From: a virus
Direction: 5' to 3' (one strand)
DNA length: 52,130 bases
IMG/VR virus record: IMGVR_UViG_3300037247_000710
Span: 1 to 52,130 of that record
Of the stretch, positions 22,011-47,552 are shown piece after piece. The first letter of the stretch is position 1; every line of letters starts with the position of its first letter. The notes beneath the pieces were generated by a model, which did no database searches, was not told where the DNA came from, and saw only the letters and a list, made by a program, of their open reading frames with translations. Position numbers and translations under genes: made by a program.

Positions 22011-24071
22011 ATGGCTGACGAAGAAACACTTGCACCAGTACCGTGGTATTTAGATGAATCTATTTATGAACCTGAACCTGAGAAGGGACCGGGTACTGTC
22101 AATGACTGGATGAATCAACCCGACGTAACGGGTAAGAGATTTCCCATCGATCCGCAAATGACTGCGGAGCAACTCGACGTGCTGCCGGAGATGACGGATA
22201 CCGCAAAAATGATCGAAGGGTTTTCCGAACCGGGAGAGGGAGTAGACGGACCTATCATGGGAACGTTGAGGCGCATCGGTACCGAGTTGAAACAAGGATG
22301 GATGCAGATGTCAACGTCAGATCCCATGGAACTGGGGTCGCAACTACAGAATCGATTCCCGGACGTCGTTGAGGTACGACTTGCAATTAACCCTTCAGGC
22401 GACGGTTCCTACATCGCAGTTGCCAAAAATAAACTCACTGGTTACGAGGCTGTGATCAACAAACCGGGAATGAGCATGCAAGATGTGCTGCAGACTATCG
22501 GTCTGGTGGGTCAGTACTTGCCTGCTGCAAAAGTCACAACTGCAGTCAAAGCACTAGTCCCACGGATAGCTGTCGCAGCTACTGCCTCAGGAGCTACGGA
22601 GACTGCAATACAAGCGGGGCAGGCTGCTCTTGGAGGTGAGTTCGATCCTGAAGATGTCGCACTGGCTACAGCGTTCGCTGCGGTCCCGGAAATAATAGCT
22701 AAACCCGCAGTAGGATTAGCATTGAAAAGCAAAGAACTGCTTTCTAGACATATGCCTGAAGCAGTCCCGGCGTCGATTCGTAGTGCATTGACATGGGCGG
22801 AGAAGCAGGGATACAAAATTACATCATCAGATGCACTGAACGAATTTCTCACAGCCCCACAGAGAATCTTTCTCAAGATTACTGAACGTATTCCCGTGTT
22901 CGGTACGCAACGAATTAAAAATGCGCAGAAGGCACAACGTGCTGACGCTCTGAAGAGGATGGCAGACAAGTTTGATATTGATATCGAGAGTGATCTTGGA
23001 CAGGAAATTGCTGAAAGTTTTATAGATCGGATGAAGAATTGGCGTTTCTTTGGTAAGCACGCAGACCCAACAGATGAAATGCTAGATCGTGCTTTTAAGA
23101 AGGAGGCAGCAGGCATTATTGACAACACTCTCAAAAGAAAAATTAAGACTGCAACAGTAGAAAACGGGAACATCGATGATGGGTTGGTCGATATGGTTTT
23201 CAAAGGCAACAAGCCTCAGATTGTCAGGGACTTCATGAGAAAATTAACTCCTGAAGGGCAGGACGCAGCACGCCGAAGATTTATACAGGAAGGATTGGAG
23301 CGGACAGGGTACAAACCGGGACAACAAGTCGGCATCGCTAATCCGGGAGCCTTTGTAAAGTATCTCGATGAGCATGACAAGATAATAAAGGAACTCTTCC
23401 CCGACGTGATACACGATCCTAAGGCGTCGCATCTTTTTGCAGAGATGACTGGTGGACCCGGAATGGTACCGGCTCCAGCTTTGAAAGCGCAGCGGGAATA
23501 CCTAGAAGGGTTCAAAGAATTCCTCAGGATTACCGATGATGCAGAGAAAGCAAGTGCAGGTGCAGGCATGACTGCAGCGATGGCAGCGGGTGGAGGATTT
23601 TATCTCTTCGACATCATGGGAGGTGCGCTAGCCGGATTCGGTACTGCAATGGCAGGTCATGCAATGCAAAGTAGATTGGCTCGCAATTTGTTTCTACGTC
23701 TGAAACATTCCAAAGGCAATCCTGAGTTGCAGCAACAGATCATGAAGGAATTACGCCCGTTAATATTAGGAACGGGTAATAAGGCACTGCAGGAAGGCGT
23801 GGACATGCCCATGCTGAACATGTCTATGAGCCCTGACATGATACAGGAGGGGGCAGCAACTGGCGCGTCAGCGGCGATGCAGATACTGAGAGCAACCATG
23901 GGGACTGTCGGCGAAACTATTGGAGGTGTTCTGGGTAGCTCCCGTGGAGATCTAACGGAAGGTGGTATAAGTCCTACCGACATAGGTAGAGGTTCTCTTG
24001 TACAAGGTCCCGGAATGGAAATGCTGCGACGAGCTGCGGAATCTGCGCAGGGAATACCCCCGGAGGAATAA
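22011..24071 (+). CDS. putative DNA-transfer / internal virion protein 4
   Basis: 686 residues. The acidic N-terminus (EETLAPVPWYLDESIYEPEP) is followed by an alpha/beta portion, then Ala/Val-rich segments (IAVAATASGATETAIQAGQA), a basic helical middle, and near residues 520-555 a Gly/Ala-rich hydrophobic stretch (AAMAAGGGFYLFDIMGGALA) suited to membrane association. Such alternation of helices and membrane-active segments is typical of pilot/ejection proteins of podoviruses. The stop overlaps the ATG of the terminase small subunit by one base. Confidence 0.6.
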   Translation: MADEETLAPVPWYLDESIYEPEPEKGPGTVNDWMNQPDVTGKRFPIDPQMTAEQLDVLPEMTDTAKMIEGFSEPGEGVDGPIMGTLRRIGTELKQGWMQMSTSDPMELGSQLQNRFPDVVEVRLAINPSGDGSYIAVAKNKLTGYEAVINKPGMSMQDVLQTIGLVGQYLPAAKVTTAVKALVPRIAVAATASGATETAIQAGQAALGGEFDPEDVALATAFAAVPEIIAKPAVGLALKSKELLSRHMPEAVPASIRSALTWAEKQGYKITSSDALNEFLTAPQRIFLKITERIPVFGTQRIKNAQKAQRADALKRMADKFDIDIESDLGQEIAESFIDRMKNWRFFGKHADPTDEMLDRAFKKEAAGIIDNTLKRKIKTATVENGNIDDGLVDMVFKGNKPQIVRDFMRKLTPEGQDAARRRFIQEGLERTGYKPGQQVGIANPGAFVKYLDEHDKIIKELFPDVIHDPKASHLFAEMTGGPGMVPAPALKAQREYLEGFKEFLRITDDAEKASAGAGMTAAMAAGGGFYLFDIMGGALAGFGTAMAGHAMQSRLARNLFLRLKHSKGNPELQQQIMKELRPLILGTGNKALQEGVDMPMLNMSMSPDMIQEGAATGASAAMQILRATMGTVGETIGGVLGSSRGDLTEGGISPTDIGRGSLVQGPGMEMLRRAAESAQGIPPEE

Positions 24072-24652
24072 TGCCTGCACGACGACTGACAAACGGGAGA
24101 GGACGGAAGTTTGTGCGTAACACCGCAGGTCAGCTGCTGGCTGAGCAACATCGTCTGTTCCTCCCTGATCACCTCGACCAAGTGCGAGCGATTGCAATGC
24201 GAGGTATCAAAGAAGAACAGATGTCCGAGATCTTCGACATCAGTCGCAAGCAAATGGGTCTGTGGAAAGCACAGTACCCGTTGTTCAAGGATGCACTCGA
24301 AGCAGGTTACACCGACGCTGATGCTGCTGTCCTTGGTGCTCTGTACCAGAGTGCCGTCGGTTACATGCACGAGGAAGAGAAAATTTTTCAGTGGGACGGA
24401 GAAATTATCCGTGCCGATACAGTTAAGCATTACAAGCCAGACACTGCAGCGATCAAGCTATGGATAACCAACCGGCAGAAGGAACACTGGAAGGATCGTC
24501 ATCACACGAACGTGTCGGGCACGGATGACAAGTCACCCATTGGTATCCGCGACGAGACGAAGCTGGAAGTCATGGCGAGTATTCTTTCACTGATCAAACC
24601 GAAACCAGACAACGCAGTCATTGATGGTCGCACTGGGACGGTGGACAAATAA
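24071..24652 (+). CDS. terminase small subunit-like protein
   Basis: 193 residues. An N-terminal helix-turn-helix-like segment (VRAIAMRGIKEEQMSEIFDI then SRKQMGLWKAQYPLFKDALE) would recognise the packaging site. A central helical part (DAAVLGALYQSAVGYMHEEE) would oligomerise. The C-terminal AAIKLWITNRQKEHWKDRHH is the hallmark I associate with this terminase small-subunit family. It would recruit phage DNA for the large subunit, which is not in this window. An alternative is a phage DNA-binding regulator. The product ends four bases before the next stop-start junction. Confidence 0.7.
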   Translation: MPARRLTNGRGRKFVRNTAGQLLAEQHRLFLPDHLDQVRAIAMRGIKEEQMSEIFDISRKQMGLWKAQYPLFKDALEAGYTDADAAVLGALYQSAVGYMHEEEKIFQWDGEIIRADTVKHYKPDTAAIKLWITNRQKEHWKDRHHTNVSGTDDKSPIGIRDETKLEVMASILSLIKPKPDNAVIDGRTGTVDK

Positions 24653-33040: not shown

Positions 33041-35531
33041 TGTACTTCTCCCCTTTGCCCCATGGTCCCAGCTCTGCTTCACCCTCCATGGGCACGCTGA
33101 GTTTGATTTTGAATGTGTCCATCAGCTTCGGTCGCTCTGCCATCTTCAGCATCTGTGGCACACACTCATCGATGTGTTCGTTCTTCACGATGGTCAGTAC
33201 TGAGTCGTGATGTTCGCCGACCAGTCGTACTTTCTTGCGCGAAAAAGTCTGGTGGATTTCGATCAGGATCATGGCTTTGTAGTCCCCGATCATTGCCTGC
33301 ACACCTGAGTTGATTGCCTGTCGCTCAGATTCCGACCGTACCTTCCTGTCCTTAGCATGGATGCCGGGGAGCCTACGCAACCGACCAGTCAGGCAACGCA
33401 CGTGACCATTTGCACGTGCAAGTTTTCTAGTTTTGCTGTGCCAGTCTTCCAGTCGGGAGTACAGTCGGAAGTATGCACGACGTGCATTCTTAGCCTCTTC
33501 CCTGCTGGGCTCCCAGCCATAATCCTTACGCGCCTGCTCGATGAATTTCTTCTCGTACATGCCGTAGATGAAACCGAAGTTAATAGCCTTGGCTCGCGTG
33601 CGTCCTTCATACCACCGTTTGTCCAATTCGATGCAAGCTGTGTGTCCTGCTTTCAACATCTCTTCTAATGCTATCGAGTAGGGCAACCACTTACTGGTCA
33701 GTTCCTCTGCTGTATTTTGCACGAGCATGGCGAATGCTCCTTGCGTACCAACTGCCAGTGTCTCGATCAGAGTGCGCCAGTGCACGTCAATACCGTCGGT
33801 GAAACAACGTCGCATTTCAGGGTCACGAGATAGATGTGCAGCGACCCTCATCTCTGCGGTGGCAATATCCAGTGCGCAGAGGGTCCAACCTGCGGGAGCA
33901 GTAACGAGGTTCCGAATCGATCCGTCCCGTGGAATAGGATGTAGAGGCGAAGAATATCTACCGGTGACAGTCCCGTGGATTTTGTAGTCGAAGTAGTACT
34001 TGTCTTCAATACGATACTTCTGCCATCCTTTAATATATGTGTTGAAAAATTTTCCTGCATTGCGATACTCCAAAATCTTCCTGACCACAGGTTTGCCGCT
34101 GATGCTAAGGAGCGCTTCTTCAGATGTGGAGGGTTTCTTTTTCTTGGTAAGAATTTTGCAGCGATATCCCAGCTCTTCATATAGGAGTTTTGCAATCTGC
34201 GCAGGACTGTCCCAGTTCAATTCGTAACCTGCGATCTCGTTCAGCTCTTCGCGCACTGTGATCTTCTTTGAGAGCAGCTCCATACCGACCTCTTTACGTG
34301 CTGCCGGATCGATGGTCAGACCCTCCATCTCGGCATCCTCCATCGCACGGGCTCCCGGCATCGTGAGCTTCCAGTAGAGACGATGGAGACCGGGCTGCTC
34401 CCGAAGCATCTTCTCGAAGAGTATGCCCAGCCTGAGTGTGTAGGTGGCATCCTTCCCGCAGTATTTGTAGTTCAGCATGGGCTTCTTGCTCTTGCCGATC
34501 TTCTCTTCCAGCGGGATGTCGTACTCAGGTTCATCGAGGTAAGTACGGCACAGACTGGTCAGGTCGTGGTGAAGGTTCTCATCGAGCACATGATGTGCGA
34601 GCATAGTGTCGAAGTGCAGGTGGAACGAGCCCCCAAACTGGCACCGCATCCACTTGTTATCAAACTTTCCATTCTGTGCGTACGTACGTTTGTTATCCCG
34701 ATGAGCAAGAAAAAACAGCAACTGCATCAGCCGACGCAAAGCATTACCGTGAGCGAAGGGGCTACTGGAAAATTGTTGATACTCAGGATGCATAAGACCG
34801 GGTATGACCCATGTTCTGTGGTCAAGAGCAATCCCAATTGCAGTGATGTAGCCATTCGGATCGAATGGGAAAAGCCCCGCTGTCTCGCAGTCAAATGCGA
34901 ATCTGGATGCTGCCTCAAACTCTCGGATAAAGGTGTCGAGGTTACCTTTGCGCACCACCGACCAGTTGACTGTGTCATCTCGCAAGCCGCTGTCTATGAG
35001 TCGAGCGAGTCGGGAGATATCGTCCTGAAGGCCGGGGAGCTTCGACGGATCGCGAAGAGTGTACGCTGGATGAAATATTGGCATCCCGATGTACGGGACT
35101 TTCGGATTATTAATGATCTCGCCATGGAATTGGTTGATCTTCGCTTTTCCACGAAACAACGTCTTCGTCGCAGGCACACCAGCAGTGACGACGTAACTGG
35201 GATTTAGTTCTGCGATTTCTTCATCGAGATAGTGACGGCACGCTTTGATTTCTGCTGCCGTGGGAGTTCTGTTATTCGGTGGGCGACATTTGACGAGGTT
35301 GGTAATGTAGGTGTTGTCGATCAGGTCGTTGCGTTTTAATTCGTGACGAAGTATTCGACCTGACTCACCGATGAAGGGGACACCCTTCCGATCTTCGTTA
35401 GCGCCCGGAGCTTCACCGATTACCATCACCTTAACGTCCTTCGGTTTGCGCGGCCCGTCACCTGCCATGCAGACCGTCCTCGCATTAGCGTGGAGACCGC
35501 AGTCGGTACAGTGGGGGTTTATACTCGCCAC
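33027..35531 (-). CDS. family-4 uracil-DNA glycosylase fused to DNA polymerase I
   Basis: 834 residues, GTG start. Residues 1-185: family-4 UDG, with 4Fe-4S Cys at 8, 11, 82 and 98, GEAPGANEDRKGVPFIGESG (39-58) and HPAY (154-157). Residues 205-380: 3'-5' exonuclease with FDCE (Asp214, Glu216), Asp291 and Y-x3-D (357-361). Polymerase motif A is LDIATAEMR (Asp555), B is R644-x3-K648 to YG (656-657), and C is EHHDSVL (Asp776, with Ser777 where bacterial Pol I has Glu). This should be the replicative polymerase, with uracil detection built in. No 5'-3' nuclease domain. No strong ribosome-binding site precedes the GTG. Confidence 0.85.
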   Translation of the reverse strand: MASINPHCTDCGLHANARTVCMAGDGPRKPKDVKVMVIGEAPGANEDRKGVPFIGESGRILRHELKRNDLIDNTYITNLVKCRPPNNRTPTAAEIKACRHYLDEEIAELNPSYVVTAGVPATKTLFRGKAKINQFHGEIINNPKVPYIGMPIFHPAYTLRDPSKLPGLQDDISRLARLIDSGLRDDTVNWSVVRKGNLDTFIREFEAASRFAFDCETAGLFPFDPNGYITAIGIALDHRTWVIPGLMHPEYQQFSSSPFAHGNALRRLMQLLFFLAHRDNKRTYAQNGKFDNKWMRCQFGGSFHLHFDTMLAHHVLDENLHHDLTSLCRTYLDEPEYDIPLEEKIGKSKKPMLNYKYCGKDATYTLRLGILFEKMLREQPGLHRLYWKLTMPGARAMEDAEMEGLTIDPAARKEVGMELLSKKITVREELNEIAGYELNWDSPAQIAKLLYEELGYRCKILTKKKKPSTSEEALLSISGKPVVRKILEYRNAGKFFNTYIKGWQKYRIEDKYYFDYKIHGTVTGRYSSPLHPIPRDGSIRNLVTAPAGWTLCALDIATAEMRVAAHLSRDPEMRRCFTDGIDVHWRTLIETLAVGTQGAFAMLVQNTAEELTSKWLPYSIALEEMLKAGHTACIELDKRWYEGRTRAKAINFGFIYGMYEKKFIEQARKDYGWEPSREEAKNARRAYFRLYSRLEDWHSKTRKLARANGHVRCLTGRLRRLPGIHAKDRKVRSESERQAINSGVQAMIGDYKAMILIEIHQTFSRKKVRLVGEHHDSVLTIVKNEHIDECVPQMLKMAERPKLMDTFKIKLSVPMEGEAELGPWGKGEKYSAAA

Positions 35532-35691
35532 GAGTCGCTGTCGCTCAAGACCATTTCCAGTGCTCCGGTTGTGCTGTTAGGATGGTCCGCCCCGACAGAC
35601 AATAAACACTCAGTGAAGTGGAAAAGAGGAGGTCCAAGAGAGACAGGACCCCCTCCCTTCCGGTTCTCGCATCAGCGCTAGAAGAGACGAG
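35532..35691. promoter_or_regulatory. divergent intergenic region with hairpin
   Basis: 160 bases between the divergent polymerase and primase genes; expected to hold promoters for both directions, but none is convincing by eye. The clearest structure is a hairpin at 35626-35655: GAGGAGGTCC pairs with GGACCCCCTC around a 10-base loop, with one A-C mismatch. It has no U-tract, so a regulatory leader rather than a terminator is likely. Confidence 0.4.
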
Positions 35692-37797
35692 ATGGCACAG
35701 AATAAAGCAGGGTTTGATCCAACGCAAACTGCGAAGTACTGGTTGGAAAAGAAAGTCTACACGGTACCGCTGAGAAGCAGATCAAAACGTCCAAAAACAA
35801 CGAATTGGCCCCACCTCCGACTGGTCGAGGACGACCTCAATAACGGTGCTTTCAAACCCGGAGACAACATCGGTGCGCTCTGGGGCGATGCTTCTGACCA
35901 TGCTACAGACGTTGATCTGGACATGGAGGAGGCGATCTGGGTAGCTGATTACATCCTCCCTGAGACCTTCATTTACGGGCGTACAGGCAAGGAACGTTCG
36001 CACTATGTATACAAGGTCATGGGTGCGCAAACGCGCAAGTGGCAGGTCCAAGAGCTGGGCACCATCATCGAGATCAGGTCCACGGGAGCCCAGTCAGTTA
36101 TCCCTCCATCCCGGCATCCTGAAGGTGGCATCTATTGCACTGACGAAGATGAAGACTTCACGCAGCTGACCAAGCTGGACCTTGAACGGTACGCTGAAGA
36201 AATTGCAGTCGCTGCAGTCTTCACTCGTCATTACCCGTCGGCAGGTTCGCGCCACGATTACGTGCACGCATGCACAGGTGCGCTCTGTCATCAGGAGTGG
36301 CCTGACGAAAAGATCGGGCGCGTCATGGAGGCAGTGCTCAACGTCATCCAAGATGAAGAAGACGAGATCAGTGATCGAGTGAATGCGGTGCGTAACACCG
36401 TCGAGCATCACAAGCTGGGCGACCGCACAAAAGGATTCACGTCACTCGAAGCATGGATGAGCATGCCGGTGATCGCAGCACTGCGCAGGTGGACGACCTC
36501 AGGCAAGATGGAAGGCAAGCTTGTGATGGCTCCGCCTAACCTGAAACCTGAACCATCACGGCTGACGTTCGATGAGTCTCTCTTAAAGGTGCCGGGACTG
36601 GTAGGTGAGATCACAACGTGGGCGAATCGCGAATCGTTTATTGACCAGCCTCTTTTCGGATTAGCGACCGGGCTCACATGCACTGCACTGGCAACATGCA
36701 ATCACTATCTCGTGGAAAGTTGGGACACACCGTTGCAACCATACTTAATGGTTACCGCACCGACCGGCGGAGGGAAAGACACTTGTCATCGTTCAGTTGC
36801 AAAGTTTGCAATTAAACTTGGTCTCGATGAAGCAGTGATCCAGCACTTCCAATCTTACTACGCGATGCTCGATCACTTAGGTGAAGAAGGAATAGGATGT
36901 TGGTTATGGGATGAAGCAGCTCGCTACATGTCCAGTGCGAAGAAACCCAGCTCGACAGATTTTCAAACGCTCAGTCACGTCATCTCACTTTACGGTGCAG
37001 CTAACAAATTTGTTCCCGGCGCACCGGGACGCAACCGAGCTATCCCTCCCCTTGATCATCCTTTCCTTGTAGTTCTCGCCACCGCTCAACCTGACATGCT
37101 GATGGACGCACTTACCAGCACAGCGCAGGAGACGGGCTTCGTAAATCGCTTCATACTTTTCGACACAGGCATCGAATACCGTGGTGTCAATCAGAGACGC
37201 AGTCACGTCTTCCCTTCTGCGATCAGTAAGCATGCGAAGCAGCTACGTGATCACGAACCGATGGACGGTGACTTCACCGACGTTAAGTTTGCAGACACGC
37301 GAACGTACAGTGCATTCCAAGAGTTCGAAGAAGTCTCGCGCCGTCGAGCGATGGGAGGTCAAGCGACATGGAGCCGAGCGAATCAGAACGCACTGATTAT
37401 GGCAGGCATTGCAGCGGTCGGTGCTGATGCACAGCGTCCTGTCATTGATTTCAATTTGTGCAAGTGGGCGATTCAACTCGTGTCATGGAGCAATGATTGC
37501 TGGGATGAAAAGCTACGCATGACTGCTGCGACTGACAGTTACACCGAGAAGGATTCATTCAAGATCGAACGCATCATCAACAACTCGCAAAAGTATGCCG
37601 AACAAAAAGCTAACTCCATCCCGCAACGTATGTTGTTACAACAAGGCTTCACCCCGCACAGTGTGATCACTCGAAACACACGAGGCATCGACCCGAAAAG
37701 ACGCACGCAAATTCTCGATGACCTGCACGAGGGCGGACTGATCGGTTCGACTGAAAAGAACGATCAGGTCGTCTACTTCCCGCACAAACCCAAATAG
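35692..37797 (+). CDS. primase-polymerase / DUF3987-type helicase fusion
   Basis: 701 residues. N-terminal AEP-type prim-pol domain: YTVPLRSRSKRPKTTNWPHL, then DNIGALWGDASDHATDVDLD (metal-binding Asp73/75/77 region), RSHYVYKV and GTIIEIRSTGAQSVIPPS. C-terminal helicase-type ATPase of the DUF3987 style: Walker A TAPTGGGKDTCH (about 355-366), a Walker B-like GCWLWDEAARYM and LVVLATAQPD. Together these would prime and unwind at the fork, complementing the polymerase encoded divergently. The last part (IPQRMLLQQGFTPHSVI, IDPKRRTQILDDL) resembles a winged helix. ATG is preceded by AGAAGAGACGAG. Confidence 0.75.
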   Translation: MAQNKAGFDPTQTAKYWLEKKVYTVPLRSRSKRPKTTNWPHLRLVEDDLNNGAFKPGDNIGALWGDASDHATDVDLDMEEAIWVADYILPETFIYGRTGKERSHYVYKVMGAQTRKWQVQELGTIIEIRSTGAQSVIPPSRHPEGGIYCTDEDEDFTQLTKLDLERYAEEIAVAAVFTRHYPSAGSRHDYVHACTGALCHQEWPDEKIGRVMEAVLNVIQDEEDEISDRVNAVRNTVEHHKLGDRTKGFTSLEAWMSMPVIAALRRWTTSGKMEGKLVMAPPNLKPEPSRLTFDESLLKVPGLVGEITTWANRESFIDQPLFGLATGLTCTALATCNHYLVESWDTPLQPYLMVTAPTGGGKDTCHRSVAKFAIKLGLDEAVIQHFQSYYAMLDHLGEEGIGCWLWDEAARYMSSAKKPSSTDFQTLSHVISLYGAANKFVPGAPGRNRAIPPLDHPFLVVLATAQPDMLMDALTSTAQETGFVNRFILFDTGIEYRGVNQRRSHVFPSAISKHAKQLRDHEPMDGDFTDVKFADTRTYSAFQEFEEVSRRRAMGGQATWSRANQNALIMAGIAAVGADAQRPVIDFNLCKWAIQLVSWSNDCWDEKLRMTAATDSYTEKDSFKIERIINNSQKYAEQKANSIPQRMLLQQGFTPHSVITRNTRGIDPKRRTQILDDLHEGGLIGSTEKNDQVVYFPHKPK

Positions 37798-39190: not shown

Positions 39191-39423
39191 TGCTAACCCA
39201 AGACATGATTGATGAGATGGGCCTCGCGGTGTACGAACAGGCGCAGGAGATATTCAAAGACTGCGGTGCTGCCGACGACTTCTGTCATCAAACCGGATTG
39301 GTATTCGGCAGCACTAACCGAATCAAATTAACGATACGCGGATGGGATGTGGAGGCATCCCACTGCACCGAAAAATTCCTAGATGCATTTGACCGCATCG
39401 CATACACGAGGATGTGTTCGTAA
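39190..39423 (+). CDS. small hypothetical early protein
   Basis: 77 residues from ATG 39190 (the frame is open a little further upstream, but TAATG coupling and a GGAACAGAG site favour this start). Helical N-terminus (TQDMIDEMGLAVYEQAQEIF), two Cys in DCGAADDFCHQ, then RIKLTIRGWDVEASHCTEKF. No known motif. Stop overlaps the next gene's ATG (TAATG). Confidence 0.5.
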   Translation: MLTQDMIDEMGLAVYEQAQEIFKDCGAADDFCHQTGLVFGSTNRIKLTIRGWDVEASHCTEKFLDAFDRIAYTRMCS

Positions 39424-40445
39424 TGACCAGACAACGCACCAACAAACCCGGCTCGCTGGGTCCTGCATTCCACACATGGTTGGAGTGGTTGGAGCACATC
39501 GAGTACGTCCTGCTTGGCACGGGACCGATGAAGGGCAAGCCCAAGTACATGGCAATGAACGACACACTGTTCCAGCAGGAAAGTGATGAGTCATTCAATG
39601 CGATGATGAAGGAGTGCATGCCGGTCGATGCCTACAACGCACGCGTCGTTCGCTCATCAACGAAGTACAAGATGGACGTCAGTGTGATGATGGACATGAT
39701 CGGCAAGTACCGGGCCGAGCTGGATTACATCCGCAACACGCGCCCCATTAACCTGCCATTCGAATGGTGCACGCTCGTGATCACTGGCTACGGTGATGAC
39801 GACATCCTAGTGTGCCTGACCGAGACCGACCCCCGTGATGGCAACGACTATCCCGAACTGAACATCGGGGCAGGCGACAAGTTCATCGACTGCAACATCG
39901 CATTCTACCGACAGACCGGCATCGAGATGCTGGACGGTAAGATCGACAAGGGTCAGCGGCTGAGCTACTGCCCGGTCGAGCTACACTTTAATAAGGGACT
40001 GCTTGAAGAGGATTCAGTGTTCCTGCATGCAGTCGCCAAGGGTGTCACCGTCACTCCAAAGGGCAAGGCTGTCGTTGATTTGATACGCACCATGGTCCTG
40101 ATCTGGATCAACTCATTCCACTTGGCAGCGATGCTGCGACACAAGCAGGTCGGACTGCCTGCCGCACACGGTCACAGGATCAAGCGCAAGCGACTGCGCA
40201 AGAAAAGGAATCACCCACACTTCGAACACTTCATCGTTGAGATGGAAGTCGATGAACCTGACGCTCAGCAAACAGGGGTGTCGATGTATCAACCACGCAA
40301 GAGGCTGCATCAGGTGCGCGGATTCTTCCGACACTACAAGACAGGCAAGGTGTCATGGGTCCGGGCGCACTGGCGCGGAGACGAGGCTATAGGCGTCGTG
40401 AAGAAGGATTACGAACTAACACTACACGAGGAGCAAAGCACATGA
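39423..40445 (+). CDS. phage hypothetical protein with conserved basic C-terminal domain
   Basis: 340 residues. N-terminal helical part (LGPAFHTWLEWLEHIEYVLL), a mixed central region (EWCTLVITGYGDDDILVCLT, LSYCPVELHFNKG), and a C-terminal segment with a Lys/Arg cluster (GHRIKRKRLRKKRNHPHFEH) followed by RKRLHQVRGFFRHYKTGKVS then WVRAHWRGDEAIGVV. The last motif is one I recognise from other phage proteins of unknown function. A nucleic-acid-binding role is plausible given the charge. Start chosen at ATG 39423 for the TAATG coupling. Confidence 0.6.
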   Translation: MTRQRTNKPGSLGPAFHTWLEWLEHIEYVLLGTGPMKGKPKYMAMNDTLFQQESDESFNAMMKECMPVDAYNARVVRSSTKYKMDVSVMMDMIGKYRAELDYIRNTRPINLPFEWCTLVITGYGDDDILVCLTETDPRDGNDYPELNIGAGDKFIDCNIAFYRQTGIEMLDGKIDKGQRLSYCPVELHFNKGLLEEDSVFLHAVAKGVTVTPKGKAVVDLIRTMVLIWINSFHLAAMLRHKQVGLPAAHGHRIKRKRLRKKRNHPHFEHFIVEMEVDEPDAQQTGVSMYQPRKRLHQVRGFFRHYKTGKVSWVRAHWRGDEAIGVVKKDYELTLHEEQST

Positions 40446-42605: not shown

Positions 42606-44090
42606 ATGGTCACACTTTCCCCCTTCCAACAAGCGGTCATCGACTGGGTCACGGCGCACATCACCGTCCCCGGTGCCTTGGTCGTTGAAGCAGTCGCTGG
42701 CAGCGGCAAGACCTTCACCATCGTAAAGGCAGCGCAGCTGATCCCCGCATCGGCGAAGGCTGTCTTCCTCGCCTTCAATAAAAAGATCGCCACCGAGCTG
42801 GGCACCAAGCTGCCCGACCACGTCGAGAGCAAGACGCTCAACGCGCTGGGCTGGGCACTGTGCCGTTACCGTCTCGGCAAGCACATCACCGTCGAACGCA
42901 ACAAGACTCGCGACCTCATCCAGAAGCACCTGCCCGAAGAGGCGCGTGAGGTGATGGCGGAACTCCTGAATATCATCGCTAAGGCAAAGTCGCACGGGCT
43001 CATCCCGCCGCGCATGAAGACTCCCCGTGGCACGTACGAGGCAACCGACGAGAAGTGGCGCAACCTGATGGACCGCTACGACGTTGACCCCAACGGCTGC
43101 GGGGAGCCCACCTTCCTTACATGGGCGAACCTGATCCTCCGCAAGGGGCTCGAAGAGCAGAACGTCTTCGACTTCGATGACCAGCTGTACATGCCGGTCG
43201 CACTGGACCTGCCCGCATGGGGCTACGAGTGGATCATCATCGATGAGGCGCAAGACGTCAGCCACGTACAGCGCACCCTGCTTCGCAAGTTCCTGAAGAG
43301 CAACGGTAAGCTGATCGCAGTCGGCGATTCGCATCAAGCCATCTACGGATTCCGGGGCGCTGACTCCCAGTCGCTCGCCAACATTGGCCGAGTGTTCAAG
43401 GCCGATACGCTGCCGCTCTCGATCAGCTACCGGTGCCCGCGCAAGGTCGTTGAGATCGCACAGCAGTTCGTGCCGCACATCACCTGCAGCGACACTGCCG
43501 AAGACGGCGAGATCCTGAACCCCACTGACTGGGCAGTCGAATCCTTCAGCGACGACGACCTCGTCGTATCGCGCACGACCGCACCGCTGATCGAGCTTGC
43601 ATACAAGTGCATCAGCGAAGGCAAGAAGGTCCACGTCTTAGGCCGGGAGATCGGCAAAGGTCTGATCAACGTCATCAAGAAGGCAGGCGGCAAACGCATC
43701 TCGACAATCGAAGAGCTGCGCCCGAAGCTGGACCGCTGGCAGGATCGCATGGTCCGCAAGGCCGAGAAGGATGAGGCGAAGATCGCAGCGATTCAGGACA
43801 AGGTGGATTGCATCAACATCCTGAGCGCAGGGCTCGACACGATCAAGCAGCTGATCGATGCCATCGAAGCGATCTTCAGCAACGATGCATCGGGAACCAT
43901 ACTGGCAACCATCCACAAGGCCAAAGGTCTTGAGGCACCGCGAGTATTCATCCTGAACCCGGACAGCATGCCCTCACGTTGGGCACGGCAAGAATGGCAG
44001 ATGGAACAGGAGCGCAACCTGCAGTACGTCGCAGTGACCCGAGCGCTTGAGACTCTCGTTTACTTACCACTGGAGGTGGTCGGGGCATAA
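42606..44090 (+). CDS. UvrD/PcrA-like superfamily 1 helicase
   Basis: 494 residues with all SF1A motifs: I EAVAGSGKTFT (about 28-38), II WIIIDEAQDVS, III AVGDSHQAIYGFRGAD, IV LSISYRCP, V ATIHKAKGLE, VI LQYVAVTRALE. It lacks the large 1B/2B insertions of full-length UvrD (about 700 residues) and so is a compact phage helicase. Base composition looks more GC-rich than the neighbouring genes, suggesting separate acquisition. Ribosome-binding cassette is AACAGGAGCAAGAC. Likely roles are fork restart or recombination. Confidence 0.85.
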   Translation: MVTLSPFQQAVIDWVTAHITVPGALVVEAVAGSGKTFTIVKAAQLIPASAKAVFLAFNKKIATELGTKLPDHVESKTLNALGWALCRYRLGKHITVERNKTRDLIQKHLPEEAREVMAELLNIIAKAKSHGLIPPRMKTPRGTYEATDEKWRNLMDRYDVDPNGCGEPTFLTWANLILRKGLEEQNVFDFDDQLYMPVALDLPAWGYEWIIIDEAQDVSHVQRTLLRKFLKSNGKLIAVGDSHQAIYGFRGADSQSLANIGRVFKADTLPLSISYRCPRKVVEIAQQFVPHITCSDTAEDGEILNPTDWAVESFSDDDLVVSRTTAPLIELAYKCISEGKKVHVLGREIGKGLINVIKKAGGKRISTIEELRPKLDRWQDRMVRKAEKDEAKIAAIQDKVDCINILSAGLDTIKQLIDAIEAIFSNDASGTILATIHKAKGLEAPRVFILNPDSMPSRWARQEWQMEQERNLQYVAVTRALETLVYLPLEVVGA

Positions 44091-44996: not shown

Positions 44997-45259
44997 ATGA
45001 GGAAATCCAAGTCGAAGTGTTGACCGCTGACTATCAGCGAAACGGCGTCGGTGGTGAGGGATTTTACGCGGCAACGATACGCTGCGACAACGAATCCCTG
45101 CTGGCGACGATAGCCTACAAGAATGACGGCGAGACGTTCGATGACTGCAGCTGCAGAGTAGTTGACCCGCTGGACCTGACCTGCCACTACCGTGGTGACC
45201 GCATCGGAGCGGCACTAATTCCGAAACTTACGAAGTATCTAGAGGAGCACAACAAATGA
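44993..45259 (+). CDS. hypothetical protein
   Basis: 88 residues beginning MNEEIQVEVLTADYQRNGVG then GEGFYAATIRCDNESLLATI. Beta-rich with four Cys (RCDNE, DDCSCRV, TCHYRG) and a C-terminal helix (GAALIPKLTKYLEEH). Could be a small metal-binding protein. ATGA overlaps at both ends place it in the same operon as its neighbours. Function unknown. Confidence 0.5.
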   Translation: MNEEIQVEVLTADYQRNGVGGEGFYAATIRCDNESLLATIAYKNDGETFDDCSCRVVDPLDLTCHYRGDRIGAALIPKLTKYLEEHNK

Positions 45260-45696
45260 AACGCTACAGCGTAAAGTTAGTCCGCAGGCTGGATCAGTCT
45301 GCAGTCGTGTCGGTTGACGCCGATAACGCGAGTGATGCCGCGCACAAGGGCATCGAAATGACCCCGCTATTCTGGCGAACGGACGTAACCGAATCGACGT
45401 ACTACGAGTCGGTCAAAGAGATCGTCGAACCGACGCCCGAGCCCGAGTCGAAAGAGAAAAACATCACGACTAAGATCTACACTTACGACGTGGAACTGGA
45501 CGTGAGTTACGACGGTGGTGACCTCGTGTCATCGTGTTTTGTCAGCAAGCAAAGAGGGCGCACAAAGTACTGCAGCTCGCTGGCATTGCTGGATGATCAA
45601 GGTACGATTGAAGGCGACAACTGGGGCGACGTGATCCAAGTGCCGGATAAAGTAGTTAAGAAAATCTACGCATGGGCGGAGGAAAACGGCTACTGA
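45256..45696 (+). CDS. hypothetical protein
   Basis: 146 residues, ribosome-binding site AGAGGAGCACAACAA. The first 60 residues (RYSVKLVRRLDQSAVVSVDA then ASDAAHKGIEM) look like a small ferredoxin-like fold. A Pro/Glu-rich linker (EPTPEPESKEK) follows, then a beta-rich second domain (YDVELDVSYDGGDLVSSCFV). Last gene before the long non-coding region; its transcript ends at the terminator at 45725. Function unknown. Confidence 0.55.
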   Translation: MKRYSVKLVRRLDQSAVVSVDADNASDAAHKGIEMTPLFWRTDVTESTYYESVKEIVEPTPEPESKEKNITTKIYTYDVELDVSYDGGDLVSSCFVSKQRGRTKYCSSLALLDDQGTIEGDNWGDVIQVPDKVVKKIYAWAEENGY

Positions 45697-45724
45697 TAAA
45701 TCCGCGCAGACTTTGGGCAATTGG

Positions 45725-45754
45725 AGACGCGTGCAAGTTGGCGCGTCTTTTTTT
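45725..45754 (+). terminator. intrinsic terminator
   Basis: AGACGCG (45725-45731) pairs with CGCGTCT (45742-45748), followed by seven T (45748-45754). Ends the operon begun at 42527. Confidence 0.85.
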
Positions 45755-45813
45755 GTGCATGCTACATGTACACGGCAGCACGAAATCCGCGCATCGGTGC
45801 ACGGGAGCGGCAC

Positions 45814-46022
45814 GATTGCAGCACGATTGCAGATGGATTGCAGAATAAGTATTTGAAAACATTCGCGATTGCAGGATTGCAGGATTGTTGTATTAAAAGA
45901 GGGTAGGAGGGGAGGAGGGAAAGAGAGTACACGCGTGAAACTACTACTACTCTATAACAATCCTACAATCTACAATCCATCCACTTAACTAACTGATACT
46001 TATACTCGCATTGCGATTGCAG
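45814..46022 (+). repeat. GATTGCAG iterons
   Basis: Exact GATTGCAG at 45814, 45825, 45836 (11-base steps), 45867, 45875 (8-base step) and 46015, plus GATTGTTG at 45883. Inverted CAATC copies lie at 45958, 45966 and 45973. Three copies in helical phase and others tandem resemble initiator-binding iterons. Confidence 0.65.
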
Positions 46023-46222
46023 GAATTGCAATTCAAAAACAACCCGCATAGGTAAGCCGTTCCCGCGTGTTGCGTAGCCGTGGAATGCACGCGTGCAAAA
46101 CAGATCACGAGAGCTGCCGCGATGCATCGGCGCTGTCAATACTTGTGCAGCGGTATATGCATATCCACCGCACCGCTACCGTGGAATGCCTAGCACAGTC
46201 GCGGACGTCAGTCAAGCTGGTG

Positions 46223-46458
46223 TTAACATAATGCACCCCGGACTGGGCACCATCCGACTTCACATAATCTGGGATTTAGTTCTTGACACGGTAGCGCTAA
46301 CGTGCTAAAATCCATGGGCGGGTCTGGGGCCGTATCCGTTTTTCCTCCTATTTGACATAATACCTGCCCTGCTGGGCTGGAGCCCGCACGGGCATTGGCT
46401 ACTTAACATAATGCCTATTTGACATAATACGCAAATGAATTCGGAGATTTGACATAAT
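46223..46458 (+). repeat. dense cluster of six TTNACATAAT elements
   Basis: Copies at 46223-46232, 46259-46268, 46352-46361, 46403-46412, 46419-46428 and 46449-46458, all in the same orientation. They surround the promoter at 46283 and precede that at 46462. Third base is A, G or C. Confidence 0.65.
46283..46311 (+). promoter_or_regulatory. near-consensus promoter with best operator copy
   Basis: -35 TTGACA (46283-46288), 17-base spacer, -10 TAAAAT (46306-46311). The spacer element CACGGTAGCGCTAACGTG (46287-46304) is nearly a perfect palindrome. Transcription would start near 46318, over 200 bases before any gene, so it may make a leader or an origin-priming RNA. Confidence 0.75.
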
Positions 46459-46461
46459 GAC

Positions 46462-46490
46462 TTGACAAGCGCTCCCGTGTATGATATGCT
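46462..46490 (+). promoter_or_regulatory. promoter for the 46537 gene with operator half-site
   Basis: -35 TTGACA (46462-46467), 17-base spacer, extended -10 TGA-TATGCT (46482-46490). The spacer holds AGCGCTCCCGTG (46468-46479), the right two thirds of the operator shifted by four bases. The downstream leader shares ACTCCTTATATACGA (46493-46507) with the promoter at 42527. Confidence 0.65.
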
Positions 46491-46536
46491 GGACTCCTTA
46501 TATACGACGAAAACGAAAATCCAAAAGGAGCACGAC

Positions 46537-46794
46537 ATGATTAGAACGATAACTTTAAAGACCGGCGGCAAATGCGCGAAGTGCGGACACGAGTTACATG
46601 CAGGCGGACGGGCTCGCTGGACACCTCACAAAATCTTTTGTCTTTCCAATGCGCATCACGGACACGCGACCGCTGGCGAGTACCGGGCGCGAATCAATAT
46701 CGCCACCGGCACCGTCCACTTCGAATTCGCCATGGGGAAAATTACCGACGACGAACGCGACGCCAGACTGGCTGATTTGCTAGGAGGAAAATAA
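46537..46794 (+). CDS. small zinc-binding-type protein
   Basis: 85 residues from ATG 46537, preceded by AAAAGGAGCACGAC. GGKCAKCGHELHAGGRARW then FCLSNAHHGHA gives a C-x2-C followed by Cys/His ligands, a possible zinc knuckle. C-terminal helix is DDERDARLADLLGGK. The gene has a promoter of its own with the shared leader and overlaps the next gene's ATG by one base, suggesting the two work together. Confidence 0.6.
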   Translation: MIRTITLKTGGKCAKCGHELHAGGRARWTPHKIFCLSNAHHGHATAGEYRARINIATGTVHFEFAMGKITDDERDARLADLLGGK

Positions 46795-47552
46795 TGAGAG
46801 TATCAAGCTTGATTCTTTATCAGGGTCCGTCCGAACTGGACGGTGCCCCGATTGTTGTCATCGCGACCGGCATCGCGAACCGTTCGAAGAATTCCAAAAC
46901 GGGCGGCATGATTCAGACCCACATCATAAGGGCGGACATGCTGCCAATGCAGGCGATTTGGTCTGGCGCGGATGCGAGCATATGCGGGGACTGTATCCAC
47001 CGGGGAGACGGTACCGGCAAAGGGCGGACATGCTACGTTAAAGTTTTTCAGGGAACGACGGTAGTCTATAAAACGTTCGCACGCGGCGGCTATCCGGTCG
47101 CGACGGAATCGGACTGGCAACTGTTTAAAGACCGGGGCGTTCGGTTCGGCACCTACGGTGATCCAGCTGCCGCGCCAATAGAGTTATGGCAGCGCCTGCA
47201 GGATCTCGCGAGCTTCACGACGGGCTATACACATCAATGGAAACGGATCTCGCCAGACTGGGCGAAACTCTGCATGGCGAGCGCGGACACGGAGGCCGAT
47301 GCAATCAATGCCCAGCGCGTAGGGTACCGGACATTTCGCGTAACTCTTGACGGTGCGGATCCGCTGAAAAATGAAGTGCTATGTCCTGCCAGCGAAGAGG
47401 CCGGTCGCAAGCTTCAATGCGAACAGTGCAAAGCATGCAACGGTGCGAACGGACGTCGCGGTTCAATCTACATTCCAATGCACGGACCCAATAGTGCCGC
47501 CAAGGGTCAATCGGAATTGTTATCACGTATCACAGTCACGGTAGTAAACTAA
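46794..47552 (+). CDS. conserved phage/plasmid protein of unknown function with Cys clusters
   Basis: 252 residues. GAPIVVIATGIANRSKNSKT then MQAIWSGADASICGDCIHRG, CYVKVFQGTTVVYKTFARGG, and a C-terminal CEQCKACNGANGRRGSIYIP. I recognise this combination from proteins found on phages and plasmids but cannot assign a function. Two Cys pairs likely bind metal. Beta-rich, with a KDRGVRFGTYGDPAAAPIEL segment that is also conserved in such proteins. Sits directly downstream of the putative origin, so involvement in replication is possible. Confidence 0.6.
   Translation: MRVSSLILYQGPSELDGAPIVVIATGIANRSKNSKTGGMIQTHIIRADMLPMQAIWSGADASICGDCIHRGDGTGKGRTCYVKVFQGTTVVYKTFARGGYPVATESDWQLFKDRGVRFGTYGDPAAAPIELWQRLQDLASFTTGYTHQWKRISPDWAKLCMASADTEADAINAQRVGYRTFRVTLDGADPLKNEVLCPASEEAGRKLQCEQCKACNGANGRRGSIYIPMHGPNSAAKGQSELLSRITVTVVN

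What the first reader, a model, noticed from the sequence alone, without database searches (positions are those of the whole stretch)
45811..46034. GATTGCAG iterons in 11-bp phase: candidate replication origin
Seen: three exact GATTGCAG copies at 11-base steps (45814, 45825, 45836), two more in tandem (45867, 45875), another at 46015, a variant at 45883 and inverted CAATC copies at 45958-45977. They are joined by a purine tract and a 12-base palindrome. Established: phased iterons mark initiator binding in plasmid and phage origins. Inference: this is the origin for the phage polymerase/prim-pol machinery.
Basis: partly seen in the sequence, partly recalled or inferred. Interest (0 to 1): 0.7.

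Follow-up and report, generated by a model that had tools for sequence, protein, structure and literature searches.

The report
Optional iteron cassette in a phage
Between two gene blocks of an uncultured bacterial virus lies a short stretch of DNA carrying repeated copies of an 8-base word arranged around a purine-rich core; it looks like a docking site for a DNA-replication starter protein, but close relatives with the same copying enzymes do without it, so it is probably an exchangeable module and its function is unproven.

Summary
Six exact GATTGCAG copies, all on one strand, lie in 45814-46022 of an 840-bp non-coding gap. No other 8-mer in the window reaches this density, and none of 200 shuffled sequences exceeded 3 copies. 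The array has structure: three sites at 11-bp steps, three at 8-bp steps, the most purine-dense 33 nt of the window, then three inverted sites. The inner groups form an inverted repeat with a 60-nt loop.

Site order and nearly exact spacing recur in IMG/VR contig 3300024059_000013. A looser version recurs in 3300038678_000107, with a pyrimidine tract in place of the purine tract.

The layout resembles origins with two iteron sets (PICIs) or a large stem-loop (pRN1, BIP-1), and the phage encodes a PrimPol with an AAA+-like domain and C-terminal winged helix. But four relatives with the same polymerase, PrimPol and helicase lack the module where it should be. Two of them (51 and 55 kb) show no such array anywhere. 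It also lies 8 kb from the PrimPol gene, and no cognate initiator was identified. The best reading is an exchangeable, untranscribed protein-binding cassette, most likely an accessory replication origin (about 40%).

The parts
45697..46536 (.). 840-bp non-coding gap that contains the module
   Evidence: Between the ORFs 45256-45696 and 46537-46794; indels relative to G001 are not multiples of three
45723..45757 (+). intrinsic terminator of the upstream operon
   Evidence: 10-bp stem plus T run; T run conserved in G001
45814..45843 (+). iteron group A: three GATTGCAG at 11-bp steps
   Evidence: G001 has the same 11, 11 spacing, third site degenerate
45867..45890 (+). iteron group B: GATTGCAG GATTGCAG GATTGTTG at 8-bp steps
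   Evidence: the best conserved part of the array in G001; GCGATTGCAGRATTGCA also twice in G005
45895..45927 (+). purine tract, 32 of 33 purines
   Evidence: densest 33-nt purine stretch of the window; purine-rich in G001, pyrimidine-rich in G005
45930..45937 (.). palindrome CACGCGTG in the loop
   Evidence: not conserved in G001
45954..45977 (-). iteron group C: inverted sites (AACAATC, TACAATC, TACAATC) at 7-8 bp steps
   Evidence: same 8, 8 steps in G001
45875..45970 (.). B/C inverted repeat, 18-nt arms (89% complementary), 60-nt loop
   Evidence: I1; found again by an unbiased stem-loop scan, where it is one of two in the window and the G001 module is the only one in G001
45987..46022 (+). 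conserved TAACTAACTGATA..TATACTCGCATTGCGATTGCA, ending in the last direct iteron
   Evidence: ACTGATA followed by GCGATTGCA also in G005
46023..46034 (.). 12-bp palindrome GAATTGCAATTC
   Evidence: not conserved in G001
46045..46110 (.). strongly conserved non-coding block (CCGCATAGGTAAGCC..GTTGCGTAGCCGTG..)
   Evidence: near-identical in G001 up to about 46107, just short of that contig's end
46283..46311 (+). sigma-70 promoter P1, downstream of the module
   Evidence: 11 of 12 matches, 17-bp spacer
46462..46490 (+). sigma-70 promoter P2 of the early operon
   Evidence: 10 of 12 matches, 17-bp spacer; the same cassette in relatives
35692..37797 (+). PrimPol + AAA+-like + C-terminal winged-helix protein, candidate (unproven) initiator
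   Evidence: PF09250 Prim-Pol; alignment of 18 homologues; model; fold matches to MCM, SaPI PriRep1, AAV Rep, papilloma E1, all weak
42606..44090 (+). UvrD/Rep-type SF1 helicase, nearest replication gene to the module
   Evidence: PF00580 and PF13361

Best explanation
The segment is an exchangeable, untranscribed cis-acting DNA cassette that binds a protein at GATTGYA sites. The most likely function is an accessory or alternative replication origin. Model: an initiator, best guess the phage PrimPol/AAA+-like protein through its C-terminal winged helix, binds the direct sites (groups A and B) and the inverted sites (group C) on either side of the purine core. It assembles there, opens the core or the AT-richer flank (about 45985-46010) and primes. 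Shown: the sites, their near-exact spacing in one relative and looser architecture in another, the inverted B/C layout, the lack of consensus promoters, the presence of the PrimPol protein, and the absence of the cassette from four relatives. Inferred: that a protein binds the sites, which protein, that opening occurs there, and that replication starts there.
For: Non-random array. Site order and near-exact spacing (11, 11, 31, 8, 8 against 11, 11, 31, 8, 9; inverted group 8, 7 against 8, 8) kept in G001 across about 80% identical DNA. Looser architecture kept in G005: two or more direct sites, the GCGATTGCAGRATTGCA pair, an R/Y tract, ACTGATA, GCGATTGCA, then a perfect inverted 14-mer. Module GC 41-45% against 52-55% for its surroundings. 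Terminator before it, promoters after it, no consensus promoter within it. Literature: PICI origins always have two iteron sets flanking an AT-rich region (PMC6092414). PrimPol + SF3 + winged-helix proteins of pRN1 and phage BIP-1 are proposed to use a large stem-loop, with a 21-nt stem and 58-nt loop in pRN1 (PMC4234260); the B/C arms here are 18 nt with a 60-nt loop. The PrimPol gene has the matching domains.
Against: Absent at the syntenic site in G002, G003, G004 and G006, and no GATTGCAG array in near-full-length G003 and G004, although all share the polymerase, PrimPol and helicase. About 8 kb from the PrimPol gene, whereas the pRN1, BIP-1 and PICI origins lie directly 3' of the initiator gene. 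The core is purine-rich rather than AT-rich. No skew inflection. No co-occurring initiator identified: the neighbouring phrog_2554 gene is a common gene of many unrelated phages. AAA+ fold matches are weak.
Confidence: 0.4

Rival explanations
1. A protein-binding array with a non-replicative job: a regulatory array for the early promoters, or a centromere-like or DNA-organising site.
For: It sits just upstream of the early promoters P1 and P2. Partition sites can be arrays of 8-bp direct repeats, as in mycobacteriophage RedRock (PMC7157519). Optional cassettes are more typical of accessory functions than of the only origin.
Against: Relatives keep the same promoter cassette without the array, and the array is 250-470 bp upstream of the P1 -35 box. 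No ParA, ParB, integrase or repressor was seen among the proteins scanned, but not every small ORF was scanned.
Confidence: 0.33
2. DNA packaging or terminus signal (pac/cos or concatemer junction).
For: phrog_2554 homologues sit near the genome end in T7-like phages, e.g. Caulobacter phage S2B with its annotated terminal repeat. Contig G001 ends about 100 bp past the module.
Against: The window and G005 contigs run straight through the module. Four other relatives end at different places, 1-3.5 kb beyond the helicase. The terminase small-subunit match is at 24071-24652, and in relatives the large subunit lies beyond the early region.
Confidence: 0.12
3. A transcribed structured RNA (sRNA or antisense primer RNA).
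For: Strong predicted folding on both strands in all three copies, z from -2.4 to -5.2.
Against: Folding on both strands follows automatically from direct plus inverted copies of one word. No consensus sigma-70 promoter on either strand inside the module, no Rfam match, and no homologue set large enough for a covariation test.
Confidence: 0.1
4. A small non-autonomous mobile element with subterminal transposase-binding repeats.
For: Patchy distribution, slightly different position in G005, and outer perfect 14-bp inverted repeats there (I1).
Against: No target-site duplication seen on inspection, one copy per genome in G001 and G005 and one array in the window, and no match in phage or plasmid collections.
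Confidence: 0.05

Closest known systems
PICI/SaPI replication origins (Rep or PriRep iterons)
   Same: Two sets of short iterons flanking a central region; recognised by a helicase-initiator with a C-terminal DNA-binding domain (PMC6092414; PMC7581432).
   Different: There the origin lies directly 3' of rep and the core is AT-rich; here it is 8 kb from the PrimPol gene with a purine core, and it is optional within the family.
pRN1/BIP-1 stem-loop origins of PrimPol + SF3 + winged-helix proteins
   Same: Very similar stem and loop lengths (21/58 nt in pRN1, 18/60 nt here); matching protein domain order.
   Different: pRN1 has no iterons, its stem-loop is directly 3' of the replication gene, and the structure is kept across its relatives; here most relatives lack it and the region 3' of PrimPol is only a promoter cassette.
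Satellite phage P4 ori bound by alpha protein
   Same: Repeats bound by a winged-helix domain of a primase-helicase (PMC4234260).
   Different: P4 alpha has a Toprim primase, and its repeats are of another sequence (own knowledge).
Iteron arrays of theta plasmids and RepA_N satellites such as PLE
   Same: Direct repeats in a non-coding gap (PMC7145576).
   Different: No Rep/RepA_N initiator gene was found next to the array; plasmid iterons are usually longer (own knowledge).

Membership tests
Iteron-type replication origin | Multiple short direct repeats clustered in non-coding DNA beyond chance | tested here: met
Iteron-type replication origin | Repeat spacing maintained by selection | tested here: met
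   Near-exact in G001; order only, not exact spacing, in G005
Iteron-type replication origin | Cognate initiator gene, usually adjacent | tested here: inconclusive
   PrimPol with winged helix 8 kb away; adjacent genes have no known initiator family
Iteron-type replication origin | Adjacent AT-rich unwinding region | tested here: inconclusive
   Module 41% GC against 52% for the window, but the core is a purine tract
Iteron-type replication origin | Initiation of DNA synthesis at the site | not testable with these tools
   Needs read depth or a replication assay
Single origin of this PrimPol/polymerase family | Present in relatives with the same replication proteins | tested here: not met
   Missing in G002, G003, G004 and G006
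pRN1/BIP-1-type stem-loop origin | Large stem-loop directly 3' of the PrimPol gene | tested here: not met
   The 3' gap in the window and its close relatives is a TTTRACATAAT-plus-promoter cassette; the module's stem-loop is 8 kb away
PICI-type origin | Two iteron sets flanking an AT-rich region | tested here: inconclusive
   Two iteron sets met (groups B and C); the core is purine-rich, not AT-rich
ParS/centromere array | parA and parB genes in the genome | tested here: inconclusive
   None among the proteins scanned; not every ORF was scanned and about 10 kb of the genome is missing

The most novel reading that the evidence does not exclude
The cassette is a swappable replication-origin (or origin-enhancer) module that some members of a PrimPol-encoding phage family acquire and others lack, so that closely related phages with the same replisome start replication in different ways.
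Probability: 0.2. Interest if true: 0.55.

Novelty: new member of a known kind. Interest (0 to 1): 0.36.

Why it matters
Origins of lytic phages that carry their own PrimPol and family-A polymerase are almost unmapped. If this module is an origin, comparing iteron-bearing and iteron-free relatives with nearly the same replisome would show whether origins in such phages are exchangeable parts, and it offers a defined 200-bp target with predicted binding sites. If it is not, it is still a conserved, well-delimited protein-binding cassette of unknown use.

Tried and rejected
1) phrog_2554 product (46794-47552) as cognate initiator: homologues in 148 phage records, often near genome ends and early genes; no iteron link shown, so dropped. 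2) Gene 39414-40445, found only in the window, G001 and G007: no known family apart from a weak phrog_10678 match; left open. 3) Origin at the pol/PrimPol divergent gap 35531-35692: conserved start regions but no repeats. 4) Stem-loop 3' of PrimPol, as in BIP-1: only promoter cassettes. 5) A stem-loop shared by G002, G006, G013 and G017 is conserved polymerase coding sequence. 6) Other iteron-bearing genomes: pattern scans of viral and genome collections gave only unrelated tandem or coding repeats besides G001 and G005; one search used a 4-base spacer by mistake instead of 3, so it is only a rough background. 7) Rfam, tRNA, phage and plasmid DNA searches: nothing. 8) Covariation of the B/C stem: too few sequences, and both arms are copies of one word, so no claim.

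Full report
WHAT IS THERE. The window is one IMG/VR virus record of 52,130 bp. The finding lies in an 840-bp non-coding gap (45697-46536) between the end of one operon, with a clear terminator at 45723-45757, and sigma-70 promoters at 46283-46311 and 46462-46490 that lead into the next operon. Six exact GATTGCAG copies lie at 45814, 45825, 45836, 45867, 45875 and 46015, all on the + strand. Six of the ten copies in the whole window fall within 210 bp, whereas 200 locally composition-matched random sequences never had an 8-mer with more than three copies in such a span. With the degenerate copy at 45883 and the inverted copies at 45958-45977 the layout is: group A (three direct sites, 11-bp steps), 31 bp, group B (three direct sites, 8-bp steps), a purine tract (32 of 33 nt, the densest in the window), group C (three inverted sites, 7-8 bp steps), a conserved TAACTAACTGATA..TATACTCGCAT stretch, and a last direct site followed by the palindrome GAATTGCAATTC. 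Groups B and C form an inverted repeat with 18-nt arms and a 60-nt loop. Only group A is strictly 11-bp phased.

CONSERVATION. The same module occurs in contig 3300024059_000013 (G001, locus L029): about 80% DNA identity, with direct sites at 11, 11, 31, 8, 9 and inverted sites at 8, 8. The block 46045-46110 just after it is conserved still more strongly. A more distant relative, 3300038678_000107 (G005, locus L033), has the order direct sites - GCGATTGCAGAATTGCA - R/Y tract (pyrimidine-rich on this strand) - ACTGATA - GCGATTGCA - inverted site, in the same neighbourhood between the helicase gene and the early region. Spacing in G005 is not identical. DNA searches of 50,697 phage and 72,556 plasmid records found nothing.

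THE DECISIVE COMPARISON. Relatives G002, G003, G004 and G006 carry the same polymerase, PrimPol and helicase at 62-83% identity. At the matching site their terminator is followed directly by a TTTAACATAAT box and a TTGACA-17-TATAAT promoter, with no iterons. G003 (51.4 kb) and G004 (55.4 kb) have no GATTGCAG array anywhere and no other dense non-coding 8-mer array. G005 has the module although its helicase (73%) is further from the window's than theirs. The module is therefore an optional cassette inserted between terminator and promoters, and cannot be the only origin of this replication system across the family.

WHY AN ORIGIN IS STILL THE LEADING READING. It has no coding capacity and no consensus promoter, so a DNA-level role is likely. 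The predicted RNA folding on both strands follows from having direct and inverted copies of one word. Two iteron sets facing a central tract is the published layout of PICI origins (PMC6092414). A stem of about 20 nt with a loop of about 60 nt is the published layout of the pRN1 origin, proposed also for phage BIP-1, whose replication proteins are PrimPol + SF3 helicase + winged helix (PMC4234260). The window's 701-aa replication protein has the Prim-Pol domain (PF09250), a P-loop region (TAPTGGGK), an AAA+-like fold that matches MCM, SaPI PriRep1, AAV Rep and papilloma E1 weakly, and a C-terminal helix-helix-strand-strand element that fits a winged helix. SaPI and SCCmec initiators bind iterons through C-terminal domains (PMC7581432). 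That the PrimPol binds GATTGCAG is inference.

AGAINST. The module is about 8 kb from PrimPol, whereas pRN1, BIP-1 and PICI origins are directly 3' of the initiator gene. The gap 3' of PrimPol in the window and close relatives holds only another promoter cassette. The GC skew follows gene direction and does not turn at 46 kb.

VERDICT. Observation confirmed; interpretation partly supported. Most likely an exchangeable initiator-binding cassette acting as an accessory or alternative origin (0.4), with a non-replicative protein-binding array close behind (0.33), then packaging (0.12), RNA (0.1) and a small mobile element (0.05).

Noticed in passing
window 42482, 46223-46460, 47829; relatives G002-G004, G006, G007, G011, G014, G017: A recurring box YATTTRACATAAT sits upstream of strong TTGACA-17-TATAAT promoters, most often with the -35 about 18-19 bp after the box start; many promoter spacers contain CGCTMMCGTG. 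It looks like a family-wide phage regulon; the box is identical to a XerD-type half-site but no XerC half was seen.
   Followed up: partly
window 1 and 52130 (ends): The record is incomplete: relatives carry about 10 kb with terminase large subunit and major head protein between the early region and the window's first gene.
   Followed up: partly
window 46045-46110; L029 to 13503: A non-coding block of about 65 bp is conserved more strongly than the iterons in G001, function unknown; absent from the iteron-free relatives inspected at this site.
   Followed up: partly
L028 5200-5700: Another unrelated array of direct and inverted CCGTTCCA/TGGAACGG repeats in AT-rich non-coding DNA, about 1.2 kb upstream of a phrog_2554 homologue.
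   Followed up: no
window 44101, 44279, 44523, 46519, 47546: The ribosome-binding region is an unusually uniform extended word, (A)AGGAGCACGAC(A), also common in relatives.
   Followed up: no
window 46794-47552: phrog_2554 / DUF7227-like gene: uncharacterised, with homologues in 148 phage records of Autographiviridae, mycobacteriophages and others, often near genome ends; iteron-free relatives G003, G004 and G006 carry a different conserved gene at the corresponding place.
   Followed up: partly
window 35531-35692: Conserved divergent gap between polymerase and PrimPol with a GACCAT...ATGGTC inverted element shared by many of the 14 genomes compared.
   Followed up: no
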